Origin: Thermoplasmatota archaeon
GTDB lineage: Archaea; Thermoplasmatota; Thermoplasmata; Thermoplasmatales; Thermoplasmataceae
Assembly (NCBI GenBank): GCA_023379845.1
Contig: JAMCPG010000024.1
Coordinates: 4,352-37,517, forward strand
Direction of reading: 5' to 3'
Length of the DNA stretch: 33,166 bases
The translations under genes and the position numbers were made by a program. Position 1 is the stretch's first letter; the number at the start of each line of letters is the position of its first letter. This document shows positions 106 through 15,197 of this stretch, one piece after another. The notes below the pieces were generated by a model, which was not told the DNA's origin, did not search any database, and saw nothing but the letters and a program-made list of their open reading frames with translations.

Positions 106-399
106 CACGATTATTCTTGATCCTTTGATGCAGCCTTGAGAGGGGAATTTATGGTCTTATTAGGCATATATTGCACTTTAACTCACAGAAAGACCTCTCT
201 TTATTTCAAGAGTCTGTTCCATCGCTTTACTCACAAGAACGAAGCAAGCTGCCAGGCTAATTATTTTAATCCTGGTTGAATAATATAGTGATTCATTACA
301 CCGGCTAACAAATTATTTCGCAAATGCCTTGATCTATTATCCTTGGAAAGAAGGCATTTACTTCTTAGGATCGATGTGATCAGTGCTTTAAGAACAAGC
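106..399. other. Intergenic region between divergent genes
   Basis: About 290 bases between the L7Ae-like promoter and the promoter of the gene at 429. I see no convincing ORF. It contains a perfect 9-bp inverted repeat (322-359, listed separately) and a weaker CCAGG/CCTGG pair near 257-280. Otherwise it is A/T-rich with no recognised element. Confidence 0.4.
322..359. repeat. 9-bp perfect inverted repeat
   Basis: AAATGCCTT at 322-330 is repeated as its reverse complement AAGGCATTT at 351-359, with a 20-base spacer. It lies about 40 bases upstream of the TATA-like box of the gene at 429, so it could be an operator for that gene or a cruciform/hairpin. Chance occurrence in A/T-rich DNA is possible. 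Confidence 0.4.
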
Positions 400-409
400 T
401 TTTTTATCT
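400..409 (+). promoter_or_regulatory. TATA-like box for the gene at 429
   Basis: TTTTTTATCT centred about 24 bases before the ATG at 429. That spacing predicts transcription starting at or next to the start codon (leaderless mRNA), and no Shine-Dalgarno is visible. Confidence 0.4.
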
Positions 410-428
410 AATTGATCGTTTTACTCTT

Positions 429-1958
429 ATGATGAATACGGAAAATGACCCAAGGCACAATCCAGAGGATTACCTTGTAAATCATATTACTGAATATCAA
501 GAGCTTACCGTCTTGTCCTATACGCCGTCATTCCTGCTGAAGAAGGATGCTTCGACAGATATCAAGAAGAGGTATGCTAACGAATTGACCAAGAGAATCA
601 GGAATGCAGGGAGTGAAACCGGAAACCCCGACGAGGCAAAAACTACAACTATTTATTTAGCTGAATCAGGTCTGAAAGAGATTTCCAGGCTTCCCATGAG
701 GGAAAAGGAGGATATTCTCTACACATGGGATGAAGTGATTTCATACGTTAAGAAGTCCAAGGGAAGATTGAATGTTTACGTAATTCCAGATAAGGACCTT
801 CCAACGGTGAGTTTCATACTTGGCAGGGTATCTGGAATATGGGGGAACAGGTCCCCTTGGGACCTGCTTATCGAATATCGTGTAGGAGTGGACAAGGAGA
901 GCCTTTTTTCCATTGCAACAAGTGAGCACCTGGCAAAGTGGTTCCTCAACATGCCTCTTCAGGATCTCCCCAGTGAAATCAAGTGGTTTCTTCAAAGGCT
1001 GAAGGACGAGGCGACAATTATGGAGTTTGAAGAGTGGATCAACAAGAAGGATATACGGTCGACCCTCCCTCCACCTGAGGTCGCAATACTTTCTGCAATG
1101 CCCAGCGAGATCGTATATTATCAGAAGAAGTTTGGAAGTGTTTACAGCAAATATCTCTCTGGCATAAACCGTGGAAGATTCGAATTAGATAGCAAAACCC
1201 AGCTAGAGCTTATTTTTCCGAACACGGGTTATGGGAGGTATAATACTCACCAGTCGGTTACAGAGCTATCTCTTAAATATCCAAGCATTGACTCCTTTTA
1301 TCTGACCGGGGTTGCAGGAGGATCTGAGCTAAAAAACGTAAAGTTGCTGGACGTTGTTGTATCTAGTGAAATAATTGAACTTGTATATGAAAAAATAATT
1401 CCCCGGACATCGCCGGAGCAGCCGAAACTGGGCAGGAAAATACTACCGCTTAATGAATCATTGTCATTCATTTTTGGTGTTGCGAATCATTCTATAGACG
1501 AATCATTCAAGCGTCATGCGCAGAGACTGAGGGAACTAAGCGTAGCTGATCCTGGCAAGTGGGAAGAGTTGCTAAAGGAGTATACAAAAGGTTTGCAGAG
1601 ATCTGAATTTATGGATGAAATTCTATCCGGCAATAGATTGCCTACTATTCACTTTGGCGCAATATTTTCCTCTGATCACAATGTAAATCATAAGGAGTTC
1701 CGGGATCTCATTTCAACTGAATACAACGTTTTTGGCTTTGAAATGGAAGGAGGAGGATTGGCCGGGTCCTGCAAGTCATTCGGGAAGAAGTTTCTGGATG
1801 TAAGGGGAATATCTGATCTCTGCAATGATCCAAATAATGAGCGATCCGTGAGAGATCCAGTATTGCAGCCGCTTGCTTCAGCGGTCGCGAGCGCAGCACT
1901 CGACTGGTTACTGCAGATCAGACTGAAAATGGAATCAAGTGAAAATTCGATCTCTTGA
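429..1958 (+). CDS. Orphan protein with C-terminal nucleoside phosphorylase-like domain; candidate effector
   Basis: 509 residues. The C-terminal domain (about 217-500) is recognisable as the PNP/UDP phosphorylase-MTA/SAH nucleosidase fold: VAILSAMPSE at 218-227, GVAGG at 294-298, a VVVSSEI strand near 309-315, then FEMEGGG at 437-443 and RGISD at 459-463. The EMEG and ISD blocks hold the ribose-binding Glu and the catalytic Asp of the family, so the domain is probably active. The tail after RGISD (a CNDPNN turn and an Ala-rich helix) resembles the phosphorylase domains found in NACHT/STAND and other conflict proteins more than housekeeping PNPs. Residues 1-215 match no family I can name; the stretch 146-180 loosely resembles the end of PLD-like sensor domains. 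It stands alone between convergent and divergent neighbours. Known: related domains in bacterial antiphage systems cleave ATP. Inference: sensor plus nucleosidase effector. Substrate is unknown. Confidence 0.7.
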   Translation: MMNTENDPRHNPEDYLVNHITEYQELTVLSYTPSFLLKKDASTDIKKRYANELTKRIRNAGSETGNPDEAKTTTIYLAESGLKEISRLPMREKEDILYTWDEVISYVKKSKGRLNVYVIPDKDLPTVSFILGRVSGIWGNRSPWDLLIEYRVGVDKESLFSIATSEHLAKWFLNMPLQDLPSEIKWFLQRLKDEATIMEFEEWINKKDIRSTLPPPEVAILSAMPSEIVYYQKKFGSVYSKYLSGINRGRFELDSKTQLELIFPNTGYGRYNTHQSVTELSLKYPSIDSFYLTGVAGGSELKNVKLLDVVVSSEIIELVYEKIIPRTSPEQPKLGRKILPLNESLSFIFGVANHSIDESFKRHAQRLRELSVADPGKWEELLKEYTKGLQRSEFMDEILSGNRLPTIHFGAIFSSDHNVNHKEFRDLISTEYNVFGFEMEGGGLAGSCKSFGKKFLDVRGISDLCNDPNNERSVRDPVLQPLASAVASAALDWLLQIRLKMESSENSIS

Positions 1959-2056
1959 ATAGTTTGAGTTAAAGTCGCTTTTCCTAATAATCACATTTTT
2001 AATTCTTTATAGCAATGTGAAGGACCAAGGAATTATAAGTTCAAACGACCAGCTTT

Positions 2057-2926
2057 CTAGATCGGATCATTCATAGCTGCACGTATAACTTCCTTCGCAG
2101 CCTCTGATGGTTCAAGCATTGGAGTCCTGTATCCTCCCTGAACGCCCATTTTTTGATAGAATGCGTAGTAATAGCCGCTCGGAAAATTCGGGGTGTTTAT
2201 GGCACGCATGAGACTGTTTGCCTTCATCTGGGTCTCCTGAGCCTTCTGTATATCGCCTTTCCTGTATTCCTGATAAACTTTTACAATAAGCGAATTGAAG
2301 TTGGACAGACCGCATACGCCTCCGTCGGCGCCGAGGGCAAGAGAAGGTAGCAGGAGATCATCCTGCCCGTTGAAGATTGAAAAGTTTTTGCCTGACAGTG
2401 GAAGAAGTTTCGAGAAGTATCGCATGTCACCGGAAGATTCCTTGAGCCCGACAACGTGCGAGTACTCCTCCTTCAATCTCTCTATGACATCAACAGGTAT
2501 GAATTCGCCTGAAAGCTGAGGAATATTATAAATGAAGAAATCCTTGTCCACCTTGTCAAGCACCACAGAAAAGTGCCTGTAAATTTCGTCATGAGACGGG
2601 TGGATATAATAGGTCGGCATCAGAACGAGTATATCGCAACCAATATCAGCCGCATTCCTGCCGAACTTCACGCATTCTTCTGTGTTCGACGACCCGATGC
2701 CTGCGAAGACCTTCAGGTCTCCCTTTATATCGTTTACATGTTGCAGGAAATTGACGCGCTCCTCAGAAAAAAGATATGGAAATAGACCTGTTGATCCCAG
2801 TGGAAAGAGACCTGAGACACCGATGCCCTTCAGGTATTCAACAAGTCGATCTGTGGCATCAAGATCGACAGAACCTTCCTGCTTGAAGGGCGTTAGCATT
2901 GGCGTTATGATTCCATCATATTTCAT
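2057..2926 (-). CDS. kdgA: 2-keto-3-deoxygluconate aldolase (DHDPS/NAL family)
   Basis: 289 residues, the usual length for this class I aldolase family. The Schiff-base lysine is K162 in GLKESSGD, the supporting tyrosine is Y133 in FFIYNIPQ, and the substrate loop GSTG is at 44-47 followed by the SEER motif. The GSTGLFPYLF form of the loop is that of archaeal KDG/KDPG aldolases rather than of dihydrodipicolinate synthase (GTTGE). It would cleave 2-keto-3-deoxygluconate to pyruvate and glyceraldehyde, the key step of the non-phosphorylated Entner-Doudoroff pathway; glucose dehydrogenase is encoded at 21847. It lies 55 bases downstream of the unknown gene at 2982 on the same strand and may share its transcript. 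Preference for KDG over KDPG cannot be read from the sequence. Confidence 0.85.
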   Translation of the reverse strand: MKYDGIITPMLTPFKQEGSVDLDATDRLVEYLKGIGVSGLFPLGSTGLFPYLFSEERVNFLQHVNDIKGDLKVFAGIGSSNTEECVKFGRNAADIGCDILVLMPTYYIHPSHDEIYRHFSVVLDKVDKDFFIYNIPQLSGEFIPVDVIERLKEEYSHVVGLKESSGDMRYFSKLLPLSGKNFSIFNGQDDLLLPSLALGADGGVCGLSNFNSLIVKVYQEYRKGDIQKAQETQMKANSLMRAINTPNFPSGYYYAFYQKMGVQGGYRTPMLEPSEAAKEVIRAAMNDPI

Positions 2927-6662: not shown

Positions 6663-7682
6663 CTAATCCAGGCCAAAGCTGTTGATGAGTTTCCCGGAAT
6701 GTCCATCGATCACCAATACAACCTTTTTACCTGACGAGTCAAACTTCGCGAACCAGACTGGAACATGCATCAGTTCAGGATCGGCAATATCTGCTTCTGT
6801 GCTCATGCTCCTTACAGAGTGATGCTGCTGATGGACCTTTTGCGACTGCAACTGGTCAACGTTTGTCTTAGCCTCGTATTTTGCGGAGTCTTCACCGACG
6901 TCACCATTCAGAACCTTAACGCCTTTGGGTAACTTTGAAGCATCAAAGATGACCCGGTCCTGCAGGTTGAAGTCATAATTCCTTGGCTGATAGTCCAGTA
7001 ATCCCTTCACGGCCACCACAGGATAATTGTAGTTCTGGTCAAGTGAGTAGGCGCGAATAGAGCCGCCGCCCCCGCCGCCGAATCCGCCCATCATAACACC
7101 GCCCATTAGCGTGCCGTCAAGGAGTCCAGAACCAAAGCCTCCGCGGCCGCCTCCACCCATCGCACCTCCGAGGATTCCAGCAAGTACCGCTGTACCAGCG
7201 ATCTTTCCAATCTCTGCTCCGGTATCCACCGCGGTGTACTTTGTTCTTGCTGATACTGGAACTATCCAGTATGGAACAATGCTCAGGTAGAGGCCCTCAT
7301 TTTTGGATTTCTCCTCCATATGACGCCGAAGCAGCCCATGATCCATGTACTCTTTTATGATCTGGGTGACCTTGTCCTCGCTCTCAATTGAAAGAGGGAG
7401 CATTGTGTTTGATTCTATACTCTTCCAGCCCTCGTTTGCAAGCGATATGCTTGCGCCACAATACTCGCATGTTATCAGCATCTCACCGATCTGTGGTTTG
7501 ATAGGAGCACCACATCCCGGACATTTCAGCTCAGTGACACCGGATGCAGCTATTACATTCTGCTTTGACTGTGTTCCTGAATTTGGTTGTGCACTGCCTC
7601 CAGAAGTCTCCTGTTTCGCCCCGCATTTGGGGCAGAAGACAGAGTCGTCAGGTATGCTCGCCCCGCATTTGTTGCAATACAT
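6663..7682 (-). CDS. Zinc-ribbon, glycine-rich membrane-associated protein of the SPFH module
   Basis: 339 residues. The N-terminus carries two zinc ribbons: Cys 3, 6, 17, 20 (CNKCG/CPKCG) and Cys 54, 57, 72, 75 (CPGCG/CEYCG). A conserved-looking globular part (90-150) precedes an Ala/Gly segment and a very Gly-rich stretch (about 165-208) that may insert in or lie along the membrane, followed by a C-terminal domain ending DGHSGKLINSFGLD. It is the last gene of a three-gene minus-strand operon, 9 bases after the SPFH gene. Zinc ribbons shared with the SPFH protein suggest they contact a common partner. Exact function unknown. Confidence 0.75.
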   Translation of the reverse strand: MYCNKCGASIPDDSVFCPKCGAKQETSGGSAQPNSGTQSKQNVIAASGVTELKCPGCGAPIKPQIGEMLITCEYCGASISLANEGWKSIESNTMLPLSIESEDKVTQIIKEYMDHGLLRRHMEEKSKNEGLYLSIVPYWIVPVSARTKYTAVDTGAEIGKIAGTAVLAGILGGAMGGGGRGGFGSGLLDGTLMGGVMMGGFGGGGGGSIRAYSLDQNYNYPVVAVKGLLDYQPRNYDFNLQDRVIFDASKLPKGVKVLNGDVGEDSAKYEAKTNVDQLQSQKVHQQHHSVRSMSTEADIADPELMHVPVWFAKFDSSGKKVVLVIDGHSGKLINSFGLD

Positions 7683-7691
7683 ATGAAATCA

Positions 7692-8837
7692 CTAAAGTTG
7701 CTTACCGCAATTCGGACAGAACTTCGCATTAGAAGAAACTTCCGTACCGCATGAGGGACACTTCTTTGTCGCGGGCTGAGACATGTTGTTGCCACAGTTC
7801 GGACAAAACTTAGTTCCCACTGGAACCTGCGTTCCGCACTTCGGGCATGGTATCGTTGCCGGTGACATCGAGGCACCGCAGTTTGGGCAGAAAGCCGCGT
7901 TTGCAGGAACCATCGATCCGCATTTTGGGCAGGCCTTCGTCGGCTGTTGCTGCATACCTGACATCATCTGGCCTGACATTCCATAACCCATACCTGCTCC
8001 AGCTCCCAGCCCAATACCTATCCCGGCTCCAGCGCCTGCAACTCCTGTAGGATTCTTGGCGGCATCAACCATGGCCTGGCCTGCCTGGTACTGGATATAG
8101 TTAACCCCCAGTACTGACATGTCAGATCTTGTATCTATAGCCTTCTGAACTTCATCCGGCAGTGAAATATTGATTCCCTGTATCTTGTTAATTTCGACAC
8201 CATACTGCCGGAAGTGATCAGGGGCAAGTCCCAGAACGGCCTGCTCGATTGTTGTGAGGTTAGCAGCCAGATCGGTTATCTTGAGTCCCTTCGCCTTCAT
8301 CTGACCCAGTACCGTATAGAGAAGGACGACAATCTGCTCCCTGAGCCTGTCCTCGACTTCCTGGGAAGTTTCAACGTTGAATGTACCGACAAATTGTGAA
8401 ATGAAGTTGGATGGATCAGAGATGCGCCACCTGTAGTCACCGAATACCTTCAGGTTGACGACACCAAATGTTGGATCCGCAAACTGGAAGGGTTCCTGAC
8501 TACCGAATTTCCCATCGAGGAACCTGCGCTGCAAATAGTATACCTCGGCCTGCTGCTGTACTCCGGAGAAGAACTTCAGGAGCTTGCCCACAACAGGCGC
8601 ATTGAAATCTGTAAGCGCGTACCTGTTGGGTTGATCGAAGTATGTGAGCACCTTCCCGTCCCTGAAGAAGACCGCAATTTCATCCTCTCTTACAACTATG
8701 TTGTCATTAAGTCGTATAAGTCGGGGAACCTTCCACATTACATTGTCCTGCTTGAACTGTGTTTCCCATGCAATCGTAATTGATCCGACGACGCTTCCGC
8801 CTGAGTAAGGTACCTGACTCGATTTTTTTCCAAACAT
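7692..8837 (-). CDS. SPFH/band 7 domain protein with three C-terminal zinc ribbons (YdjI-like)
   Basis: 381 residues. The SPFH domain spans about 30-265 (DDE-rich strand region, then the LREQIVVLLYTVLGQM helix and the GINISLPDEVQKAI segment). An Ala/Gly-rich hinge (266-295) leads to three tandem zinc ribbons with CxxC pairs at 303/306-317/320, 331/334-345/348 and 360/363-374/377. This layout is that of the 'virion core protein'/YdjI family; in Bacillus ydjI is linked to the PspA envelope-stress locus. SPFH proteins oligomerise on membranes. The ATG overlaps the stop of the upstream coiled-coil gene (TAATG) and has a good Shine-Dalgarno, GGAGGT, inside that gene's end, so translation is coupled. 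Probably a membrane scaffold that recruits partners through its ribbons. Confidence 0.85.
   Translation of the reverse strand: MFGKKSSQVPYSGGSVVGSITIAWETQFKQDNVMWKVPRLIRLNDNIVVREDEIAVFFRDGKVLTYFDQPNRYALTDFNAPVVGKLLKFFSGVQQQAEVYYLQRRFLDGKFGSQEPFQFADPTFGVVNLKVFGDYRWRISDPSNFISQFVGTFNVETSQEVEDRLREQIVVLLYTVLGQMKAKGLKITDLAANLTTIEQAVLGLAPDHFRQYGVEINKIQGINISLPDEVQKAIDTRSDMSVLGVNYIQYQAGQAMVDAAKNPTGVAGAGAGIGIGLGAGAGMGYGMSGQMMSGMQQQPTKACPKCGSMVPANAAFCPNCGASMSPATIPCPKCGTQVPVGTKFCPNCGNNMSQPATKKCPSCGTEVSSNAKFCPNCGKQL
7700..7931 (-). repeat. Tandem zinc-ribbon coding repeat, three units
   Basis: Three repeats of about 28-29 codons within the SPFH gene, each coding a CPxCG-(9 residues)-FCPNCG ribbon joined by short Ser/Pro/Thr-rich linkers. 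The units differ in linker and loop sequence, so they are old duplications rather than a recent expansion. Confidence 0.8.
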
Positions 8838-13744: not shown

Positions 13745-13762
13745 AGTAAGTACCAGCGATAT

Positions 13763-13849
13763 GGAGGTACGGGGAGCTCGTAAAGGGCTGAGAGGGCTTT
13801 AAGCCGACCCGACGAACCTGAACCAGATAATACTGGCGGAGGGAAAAAA
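13763..13849 (+). promoter_or_regulatory. TPP (THI-box) riboswitch
   Basis: All conserved blocks of the thiamine pyrophosphate aptamer are present in order: GGGG (13771-13774), a P3 stem GCTC/GGGC with a 5-base loop, the CTGAGA block (13788-13793), a small variable hairpin (GGCT/AGCC), ACCC pairing back to GGGG, ACCTGA (13816-13821), the CCAG-ATAATA-CTGG P5 hairpin (13823-13836), and GCGGAGGGA (13836-13844). Archaeal TPP riboswitches are known in Thermoplasma ahead of predicted thiamine transporters. The closing P1 stem is unclear: CGATAT (13757-13762) could pair with ATATCG (13860-13865), or GTACC (13750-13754) with GGTAC (13766-13770), if the transcript starts early enough. GGAGGG of the core is also the Shine-Dalgarno of the ORF at 13850. 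Confidence 0.9.
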
Positions 13850-13924
13850 ATGCATAATTATATCGTACGTGAAACGGATAAGACATCGCTGGCTCTCAGG
13901 AGAGGTGCAATAAATGGGTTCTGA
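13850..13924 (+). CDS. 24-codon leader ORF downstream of the TPP riboswitch
   Basis: ATG 6 bases after the GGAGGG Shine-Dalgarno that forms part of the riboswitch core. The peptide begins MHNYIVRETDKTSLALRRGA and stops at 13922-13924, overlapping the first 11 bases of the transporter gene in another frame. Ligand binding would hide its ribosome-binding site. It may act to couple translation to the transporter, or the peptide may be an N-terminal part of the transporter if the sequence carries a one-base error. No family recognised. Confidence 0.5.
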   Translation: MHNYIVRETDKTSLALRRGAINGF

Positions 13925-15197
13925 GGGACATATAACAAAACCTCAGAAGGCACTCATAACATCGGCTTCACTTGGTTACATGATGTGGGGTGTTGTCGCA
14001 TCGATAGGCCCGCTCGCAGCGGCTGGGGAAATTCTATCGTCCAGCCCGGTGCTCGATACTAAAATTTTCTCTCTCATTATACCAACGCTTGCCCTTCTTG
14101 CAGGAAATGTCGCAATGGGTTACTTCAGCGACAGAATAGGAAGAAAGAAAATATTCTTCCTGACTCTTATTCTTTATGGATTTGGCATTATAGCTGTTTA
14201 TCTCTCAACCAACTTTCCAGAGCTCGCAATTGGACTAGCTTTGGCGGAGTTTGGGGCGGGAGGGGAAGAGCCCCCTTCACTCTCCGTGGTGGCAGAGGAC
14301 TTTTCACCGTCCAGAAGAGGGAGATTCCTTACGTTAATACCGAACTTCAACAACATCGGTACCCTCGTTTTCTACCTTGTTCTTATATTGAACATACTGC
14401 CAGGCAGAGCGGACATCCTGGTTTTCGGTTTTGGCATCATAATTATTGCTTTCTTTGCAAGGGTCTCGATTCCTGAGTCTTTCAGGTGGGAAAAATCAAC
14501 TGGAAGAGTAACCGAATCTTCAGAGACATTGAAAACCCTGACTATAGAAGATGAGGGTCAGAAGAGGAAAAAACCGAATTCGCTTGCTGCTTTTTCCATA
14601 CTATCCATGCTCGCTGTTTCACAATACCTGACTTTTGGGTTGATGACGTACGTAATAGGACCATATGAATTTCCAGGGGCTTTCACGGACAACGTCATTG
14701 TTGCTGTCGGAATGGCAGGATCATCAGTCGCAGGCTTTATCGCGCTATTGCTGATAAACAGGAACAGGACAAATTATACACTGTTCGCATTTGGCGGCGG
14801 CTTCCTATCGTTGATAGCGATACTCGCTGTTGCGTTCCTCAGCCAGGGTTTATTCGTGGCCGCCCCGATTCTATATTTCTACCCTCTTCTGTTCATAAGC
14901 ATGATGTTCAGTGAGTTCGCATGGGCTTCCCGCACTACATTGGAGCCTGAGATGTTCTCGACCTCATGGAGAGCCTCGTCTATTGGACTGGTAAGGGTCG
15001 TCCCAATGATTGCCTATGCTCTTTCTATCGTATATACGAGCTCTCTTGGCCTCCTGCAATACATAGAATTCAACGGAGTGCTCTGGTTTATAGGTTTGCT
15101 TGGTGCAATATGGCTGAAGACTATGAAGCTCGATACATCGAAGGTCAGCCTTGACTATGATGATGAATCTCAACCAAAAATGGAGATCTCACCTTGA
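13914..15197 (+). CDS. MFS transporter under TPP riboswitch control, predicted thiamine-related uptake
   Basis: 427 residues with 12 predicted membrane segments in two halves joined by a charged loop (about 196-225). Motif A is GYFSDRIGRKK (about 69-79) and an acidic FGAGGEEPP stretch (about 113-121) sits in helix 4. The start has its own Shine-Dalgarno, GAGGTG (13902-13907), 6 bases upstream. Known: MFS transporters behind archaeal TPP riboswitches were predicted to take up thiamine or its precursors. The riboswitch 65 bases upstream makes that the best call here, although the exact substrate (thiamine, hydroxymethylpyrimidine, or their phosphates) is not shown by the sequence. Confidence 0.8.
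   Translation: MGSEGHITKPQKALITSASLGYMMWGVVASIGPLAAAGEILSSSPVLDTKIFSLIIPTLALLAGNVAMGYFSDRIGRKKIFFLTLILYGFGIIAVYLSTNFPELAIGLALAEFGAGGEEPPSLSVVAEDFSPSRRGRFLTLIPNFNNIGTLVFYLVLILNILPGRADILVFGFGIIIIAFFARVSIPESFRWEKSTGRVTESSETLKTLTIEDEGQKRKKPNSLAAFSILSMLAVSQYLTFGLMTYVIGPYEFPGAFTDNVIVAVGMAGSSVAGFIALLLINRNRTNYTLFAFGGGFLSLIAILAVAFLSQGLFVAAPILYFYPLLFISMMFSEFAWASRTTLEPEMFSTSWRASSIGLVRVVPMIAYALSIVYTSSLGLLQYIEFNGVLWFIGLLGAIWLKTMKLDTSKVSLDYDDESQPKMEISP

What the first reader, a model, noticed from the sequence alone, without database searches (positions are those of the whole stretch)
429..1958. Orphan sensor-plus-nucleosidase protein, candidate archaeal immune effector
A C-terminal nucleoside phosphorylase-like domain retains the EMEG and RGISD active-site blocks, and its tail resembles phosphorylase domains of NACHT/STAND and related conflict proteins. 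Established: PNP-family effectors in several bacterial antiphage systems cleave ATP on infection. Here the domain is fused to a 215-residue N-terminus I cannot assign, with no neighbouring purine-salvage gene, in an archaeon. Inference: the N-terminus senses a trigger and the C-terminus depletes a nucleotide.
Basis: partly seen in the sequence, partly recalled or inferred. Interest (0 to 1): 0.7.

Follow-up and report, generated by a model that had tools for sequence, protein, structure and literature searches.

The report
Orphan nucleosidase gene gained by archaeon
An acid-loving archaeon carries one extra gene, dropped between two housekeeping genes and already broken in its nearest relative, for a nucleotide-cleaving-type enzyme fused to a domain seen nowhere else; it may be a one-gene virus-defence or stress switch, but nothing here proves that.

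Summary
The open reading frame is real (window 429-1958, 509 aa). Residues 218-472 are a PNP/UDP-phosphorylase-superfamily domain keeping the three catalytic residues of MTA/SAH nucleosidases (E227, E440, D463). Residues 1-215 match no family or solved structure. Only one intact homologue was found (Thermoplasmatales archaeon A_EUR_06, 69% identical, strong purifying selection). In the window's genus the gene lies in a ~1.95 kb insert between rpl7ae and a DHDPS-family gene. Three sister genomes have the empty site; the closest sister has a frameshifted remnant with a 1.5 kb deletion. The A_EUR_06 copy abuts a transposase remnant at another locus. So it is a selected but dispensable, mobile single gene. 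The C-terminal domain is not a housekeeping MTA/SAH, DeoD or AMP nucleosidase, but neither does it join the known immune ATP-nucleosidase clade: it scores equally and poorly with both (57-69 bits; true members above 105) and forms its own deep branch. No cyclase, Cas10 or adjacent defence gene accompanies it. Best reading, about 45%: a stand-alone conditional nucleosidase of the conflict/abortive-infection type, trigger and substrate unknown.

The parts
429..1958 (+). whole gene, 509-aa orphan-domain + nucleosidase fusion
   Evidence: homologue 69% identical over the full length
429..1073 (+). N-terminal domain, residues 1-215, no known family; weak alpha/beta prediction
   Evidence: no hits; AF2 mean pLDDT 42, pTM 0.36, Foldseek nothing at E<=0.001
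840..863 (+). most distinctive N-terminal motif WGNRSPWD (residues 138-145)
   Evidence: invariant but for one S/A position in both copies; the pattern WGNRxPWD in GTDB species genomes found only the A_EUR_06 gene as a true relative
1080..1844 (+). PNP/UDP phosphorylase superfamily domain, residues 218-472
   Evidence: PF01048 E=2.7e-7
1107..1109 (+). E227, aligned with catalytic Glu12 of E. coli MtnN
   Evidence: alignment
1740..1751 (+). EMEG block, residues 438-441 (E440 aligned with Glu174 of MtnN)
   Evidence: alignment
1803..1817 (+). RGISD block, residues 459-463 (D463 aligned with Asp197 of MtnN)
   Evidence: alignment
1401..1640 (+). insert between the VYE strand and the HFGAIFSSD block (about residues 325-404), longer than in any of the 32 reference domains
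   Evidence: alignment
113..2102 (.). DNA insert absent from sister genomes G347, G349, G350 (35-54 bp there instead); right edge lies at or inside the last codons of the DHDPS-family gene
541..2066 (.). part of the insert deleted in G348, which keeps a frameshifted remnant of about the first 37 codons
400..410 (+). TATA-like box (TTTTTTATCTA) about 20-29 nt before the ATG, nearly unchanged in the G348 remnant; suggests a leaderless own promoter
   Evidence: read directly from sequence; inference

Best explanation
The gene encodes a stand-alone, single-polypeptide conditional nucleosidase. The orphan N-terminal domain (residues 1-215) recognises a trigger or protein partner and holds or releases the C-terminal PNP-fold enzyme, which then cleaves the base from an adenine nucleoside or nucleotide and so halts growth or kills the infected or stressed cell. 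Shown here: the fusion, the conserved catalytic residues, purifying selection on both halves, narrow patchy distribution, gain at one chromosomal site, decay in a sister, absence of metabolic neighbours. Inferred: hydrolysis rather than phosphorolysis, a nucleotide as substrate, regulation by the N-terminus, and the defence role.
For: Catalytic residues of the hydrolytic MTA/SAH-type nucleosidases kept in both copies. Not a housekeeping enzyme: NCBIfam equivalog 49.6 bits vs cut-off 169, own deep branch, and the genome has its own MTAP-type phosphorylase elsewhere. Domain features shared with immune phosphorylases rather than MTA/SAH enzymes: EMEGxG[LV]A instead of EMEGxA, a YE after the VVSS strand, an insert before the HFGPI block, and a C-terminal Q..A...AA tail. 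Accessory behaviour typical of defence genes: present in 2 of 117 genomes of the order plus 1 remnant, inserted between rpl7ae and a DHDPS-family gene with empty sites in three sisters, transposase remnant overlapping the start of the A_EUR_06 copy, Dam-type methyltransferase about 6 kb from it. Third codon positions 37% identical versus 69% amino-acid identity; dN 0.22 with dS saturated, similar in both halves. Precedent: PNP-domain effectors degrade ATP/dATP in CBASS (Cap17) and Detocs (PMC10952713, PMC12043709, PMC9966839).
Against: No kinship to the immune phosphorylase clade is demonstrated: profile scores are equal for conflict and MTA/SAH sets and the AU test does not separate them. No defence gene next to the window copy, no CD-NTase or Cas10 in the 84%-complete genome. 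The PADLOC hit to the CBASS phosphorylase model covers only 47 residues and that model also rings in ordinary genomes. Two intact sequences are too few for statistics on distribution.
Confidence: 0.45

Rival explanations
1. A divergent metabolic nucleosidase: a lineage-specific MTA/SAH, adenosine or other nucleoside hydrolase whose N-terminus is an allosteric or oligomerisation domain, as in AMP nucleosidase, kept as a niche metabolic accessory gene.
For: Catalytic residues are those of MTA/SAH nucleosidases; best single BLAST partner is an MTA/SAH nucleosidase (E 7e-12); MTA/SAH profile scores as well as the conflict one; sister-to-MTA/SAH not rejected (p-AU 0.46); a regulatory N-terminus plus PNP fold also occurs in AMP nucleosidase.
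Against: Far below MTA/SAH equivalog cut-offs and below every left-out true MTA/SAH member; no similarity to the AMP nucleosidase N-terminus (hhalign 0.1%); own MTAP-type enzyme present and PF01048 proteins in 40 of 41 family genomes; no metabolic operon; presence/absence and decay within one genus.
Confidence: 0.25
2. [quoted passage not shown]
For: Proposed for PNP domains in conflict systems (PMC7159879); single gene with unknown partner.
Against: No linked receiver or effector recognised beside either copy; the PNP effectors that have been tested degrade ATP/dATP (PMC10952713, PMC12043709).
Confidence: 0.12
3. A selfish or cargo gene (toxin-like or addiction function, or part of a decayed mobile element) with no role in defence.
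For: Insert of one gene with no partner; transposase remnant abutting the A_EUR_06 copy; decay in G348.
Against: Purifying selection across two genera; no antitoxin-like ORF beside the window copy, whose upstream insert holds no ORF above 47 aa; no repeats noticed by eye at the insert ends (not tested with a repeat finder).
Confidence: 0.15

Closest known systems
Cap17-type PNP effectors of CBASS (PADLOC PDLC00759; PF18178 SLOG + PF01048), here L176, L178, L179
   Same: about 505-511 aa, C-terminal PNP domain, N-terminal regulatory domain, catalytic Glu/Glu/Asp kept
   Different: N-terminus unrelated (hhalign 0.1%; no PF18178 hit), no CD-NTase beside it or in the genome, outside their clade
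Detocs-like response-regulator-PNP proteins (L201, L202, L203)
   Same: N-terminal input domain followed by a C-terminal PNP domain
   Different: No receiver domain, no kinase gene beside it; outside their clade
NACHT/TPR/SAVED/HNH-fused phosphorylases of plasmids (L173, L175, L198, L200)
   Same: EMEGxG and RGISD-type blocks, YE motif and C-terminal A-rich helix in most
   Different: No NTPase, TPR, SAVED or HNH part; PNP domain only 57-64 bits with their profile versus 106-288 for left-out members
MTA/SAH nucleosidases (MtnN; PDB 4bmx and others)
   Same: Superfamily and catalytic residues; best PDB sequence match E=2.7e-6 over residues 406-470
   Different: Below all equivalog cut-offs, extra 215-aa N-terminus and an ~80-residue insert, own deep branch
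AMP nucleosidase (Amn)
   Same: Regulatory N-terminus plus C-terminal PNP fold, similar length
   Different: No similarity in either half by profile comparison with E. coli Amn; no AMP-nucleosidase N-terminal family hit

Membership tests
PNP/UDP phosphorylase superfamily (PF01048) | score above Pfam gathering cut-off | tested here: met
   30.7 bits vs 25.1; homologue 37.9
MTA/SAH nucleosidase (MtnN) | NCBIfam equivalog cut-off | tested here: not met
   best 49.6 bits vs cut-off 169
MTA/SAH nucleosidase (MtnN) | catalytic Glu12, Glu174, Asp197 | tested here: met
   E227, E440, D463 in both copies
MTA/SAH nucleosidase (MtnN) | groups with MTA/SAH enzymes | tested here: inconclusive
   61.9/69.1 bits vs 148-339 for left-out members; outside the clade in the best tree, joint clade not rejected (p-AU 0.46)
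Immune ATP nucleosidases (Cap17/Detocs/NACHT-PNP) | PNP domain inside the conflict-type clade | tested here: not met
   conflict domains form a group without it (92/93); sister position only 79/46; 56.6/64.3 bits vs 106-288
Immune ATP nucleosidases (Cap17/Detocs/NACHT-PNP) | known input module (SLOG PF18178, receiver, NACHT, SAVED, TPR) | tested here: not met
   no hit for residues 1-215; hhalign against SLOG-, SAVED- and receiver-type partners 0.1-0.3%
Immune ATP nucleosidases (Cap17/Detocs/NACHT-PNP) | linked sensor gene (CD-NTase, kinase, Cas10) | tested here: not met
   neighbours are rpl7ae and a DHDPS-family gene; no SMODS or Cas10 in the genome, 84% complete
Immune ATP nucleosidases (Cap17/Detocs/NACHT-PNP) | cleavage of ATP/dATP on infection | not testable with these tools
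   needs purified protein or infected cells
AMP nucleosidase | AMP-nucleosidase N-terminal domain and Amn-type PNP | tested here: not met
   no Pfam hit; hhalign 0.1% for both halves against E. coli Amn
DeoD/Udp purine or uridine phosphorylase | groups with them / family cut-off | tested here: not met
   DeoD 20.3 bits vs 230; outside their well-supported group

The most novel reading that the evidence does not exclude
A single-gene archaeal immune effector built from a sensor fold not yet described and a third, independent lineage of PNP-fold nucleosidases, distinct from both the housekeeping enzymes and the known immune ATP nucleosidases, and moving as a lone cargo gene among Thermoplasmatales.
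Probability: 0.3. Interest if true: 0.65.

Novelty: new variant of a known kind. Interest (0 to 1): 0.42.

Why it matters
[quoted passage not shown] A lone, movable nucleosidase with a new N-terminal domain is the kind of gene that model-based surveys miss: PADLOC gives it only a 14.8-bit fragment hit. If it depletes a nucleotide on infection, nucleotide depletion as an immune strategy would extend to acidophilic archaea through an enzyme lineage separate from the bacterial one.

Tried and rejected
Homologue searches of GTDB species genomes by 8-mer peptides and by the WGNRxPWD motif (63 places, only A_EUR_06 real); of IMG/VR with five queries; of phage and plasmid records by tblastn; of 390 phylum and 400 class genomes with profiles: the few weak N-terminal hits looked at are unrelated proteins or reading frames with stops. 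One IMG/VR query (A3) was an alignment with masked and altered copies of the window protein, made only to steer which peptide patterns were scanned. AF2 of the whole protein (pLDDT 33.5) and of the N-terminus (pLDDT 42) are too poor to use; Foldseek gave nothing at E<=0.001. A Bro-N hit (E=0.03, only one of the two copies) and ankyrin-design/Hsp60 hits of the N-terminal profile were judged chance. PADLOC PDLC00759 as evidence for CBASS membership was rejected: short match, and the model also rings in B. subtilis, T. maritima and others. My initial impression that the C-terminal domain belongs with conflict phosphorylases was not upheld by leave-one-out profile scores, although hhalign leaned slightly that way (2e-18 vs 7e-15).

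Full report
What is there. The ORF at 429-1958 (+) is intact and 509 codons long. Pfam places PNP_UDP_1 (PF01048) at residues 218-472 with E=2.7e-7, above the curated cut-off, and the best PDB relatives by sequence are MTA/SAH nucleosidases (E=2.7e-6, residues 406-470). Aligned with 32 reference domains, the protein keeps the catalytic residues of E. coli MtnN: E227 (Glu12), E440 (Glu174) and D463 (Asp197) (catalytic roles from established knowledge of MtnN). It has a longer insert than any reference between the VYE strand and the HFGAIFSSD block. Residues 1-215 match nothing: not in Pfam, PHROGs, PADLOC, NCBIfam or PDB sequences.

Homologues. The only intact homologue found is in another genus of the same family (G122; 69% identity over the full length). 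It is the only one of 117 genomes of the order, besides the window's own, with the full gene. No other full-length copy was found in 390 phylum genomes, in 400 class genomes searched with the N-terminus alone, or in IMG/VR, phage and plasmid collections. Between the two copies third codon positions are 37% identical, first and second 78% and 86%, amino acids 69%; dN is 0.22 and dS saturated, with the N-terminal and C-terminal parts alike. Both halves are therefore under purifying selection; it is a functional gene, not a chance ORF.

Genomic history. In the window's genome the gene lies between rpl7ae (its start is at the window's left edge, minus strand) and a DHDPS-family gene (2057-2926, minus). 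Sister genomes G347, G349 and G350 have those two genes with 35-54 bp between the aligned flanks, the rest of the locus being collinear at about 70-85% identity. G348, the closest sister, has the same insert reduced to its left part: about 37 codons of the gene with a one-base frameshift near codon 4 and a deletion equivalent to window 541-2066. The simplest history is one insertion in the G000/G348 ancestor and decay in G348. The insert is unlikely to be an assembly artefact because the remnant in another assembly shares its flanks and upstream part. The A_EUR_06 copy is at another locus, and its ATG overlaps the end of a 92-codon remnant of an IS3/rve_3-type transposase (DYNTVRPHSSINYLPTEEF; E=8.4e-5, below the family cut-off but with the characteristic motif). 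The ATP-sulfurylase gene downstream of it is in pieces and a Dam-type methyltransferase lies about 6 kb away. The gene thus behaves as a mobile, dispensable accessory gene.

What the enzyme part is. It is not a housekeeping enzyme by family cut-offs (MtnN 49.6 of 169 bits; DeoD 20.3 of 230), and the genome has its own MTAP-type phosphorylase. I collected 18 PNP domains from plasmid-borne and archaeal conflict-type proteins (CBASS, SAVED, NACHT, TPR, HNH and response-regulator fusions) and 8 MTA/SAH nucleosidases. In the tree the query pair is a long separate branch, sister to the conflict clade with weak support (79/46), and holding it with MTA/SAH enzymes costs 0.40 log units (p-AU 0.46). Leave-one-out profiles are the clearest test: every true conflict member scores at least 106 bits and every MTA/SAH member at least 148 with its own class, whereas the query scores 57/64 with the conflict set and 62/69 with the MTA/SAH set (own/homologue). 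So it belongs to neither class. Some features (EMEGxG, YE, the insert position, the alanine-rich tail) look like conflict phosphorylases, and hhalign leans that way slightly, but that is resemblance, not membership.

Mechanism. Best reading: one polypeptide in which an unknown N-terminal domain controls a nucleosidase whose activity stops the cell. Fusion, conserved active site, selection and accessory behaviour are shown. Substrate, regulation and defence are inferred from the layout and from PNP effectors that degrade ATP/dATP in CBASS and Detocs (PMC10952713, PMC12043709, PMC9966839). Against a cyclic-nucleotide or CRISPR type III trigger: no SMODS cyclase and no Cas10 in the 84%-complete genome. 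A metabolic role is the main rival and is not excluded. The claim would move most with an assay of the purified protein on ATP, NAD, MTA and SAH, with catalytic mutants.

N-terminal fold. AlphaFold2 with only two rows is unreliable (pLDDT 42, pTM 0.36); the secondary-structure order beta-alpha-beta-alpha-beta-beta-beta-alpha-alpha is the most that can be read, and Foldseek finds no match. Profile comparisons show no similarity to the SLOG, SAVED, receiver and AMP-nucleosidase partner domains tested.

Verdict. What is added: the gene is an accessory single-gene insertion, already decayed in a sister, and its PNP domain is a separate deep lineage. I rate it a new variant of a known kind (orphan input domain plus PNP-fold nucleosidase), interest 0.42.

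Noticed in passing
L005:9964-10242 (G122 contig C10): C-terminal remnant of an IS3/rve_3-type transposase whose stop codon overlaps the start of the homologous gene; the ATP-sulfurylase gene downstream (L005:12231-13739) is in pieces.
   Followed up: partly
window 13760-13861: TPP riboswitch (Rfam RF00059, 65.8 bits, above cut-off) directly upstream of an MFS transporter at 13914-15197: a candidate thiamine-related transporter in this archaeon.
   Followed up: no
window 6663-8837: Two neighbouring genes: an SPFH/Band-7 protein with C-terminal zinc ribbons and a zinc-ribbon protein, a pair of unknown role.
   Followed up: no
L061 (G241 contig C21): 760-aa archaeal protein joining a conflict-type PNP domain to what reads as a methyltransferase-like part (not run through the family libraries); it groups inside the conflict phosphorylase clade.
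   Followed up: partly
L060/L076 (G423 contig C94) and L059 (G214 contig C4): Defence-like loci in related archaea: proteins matching the N-terminal part of PADLOC PDLC00759 with a different C-terminal domain; in L060 beside what reads as a CD-NTase-like gene.
   Followed up: no
window 2057-2102: The last codons of the DHDPS-family gene differ between genomes with and without the insert, so the insertion seems to have replaced that gene's 3' end.
   Followed up: partly
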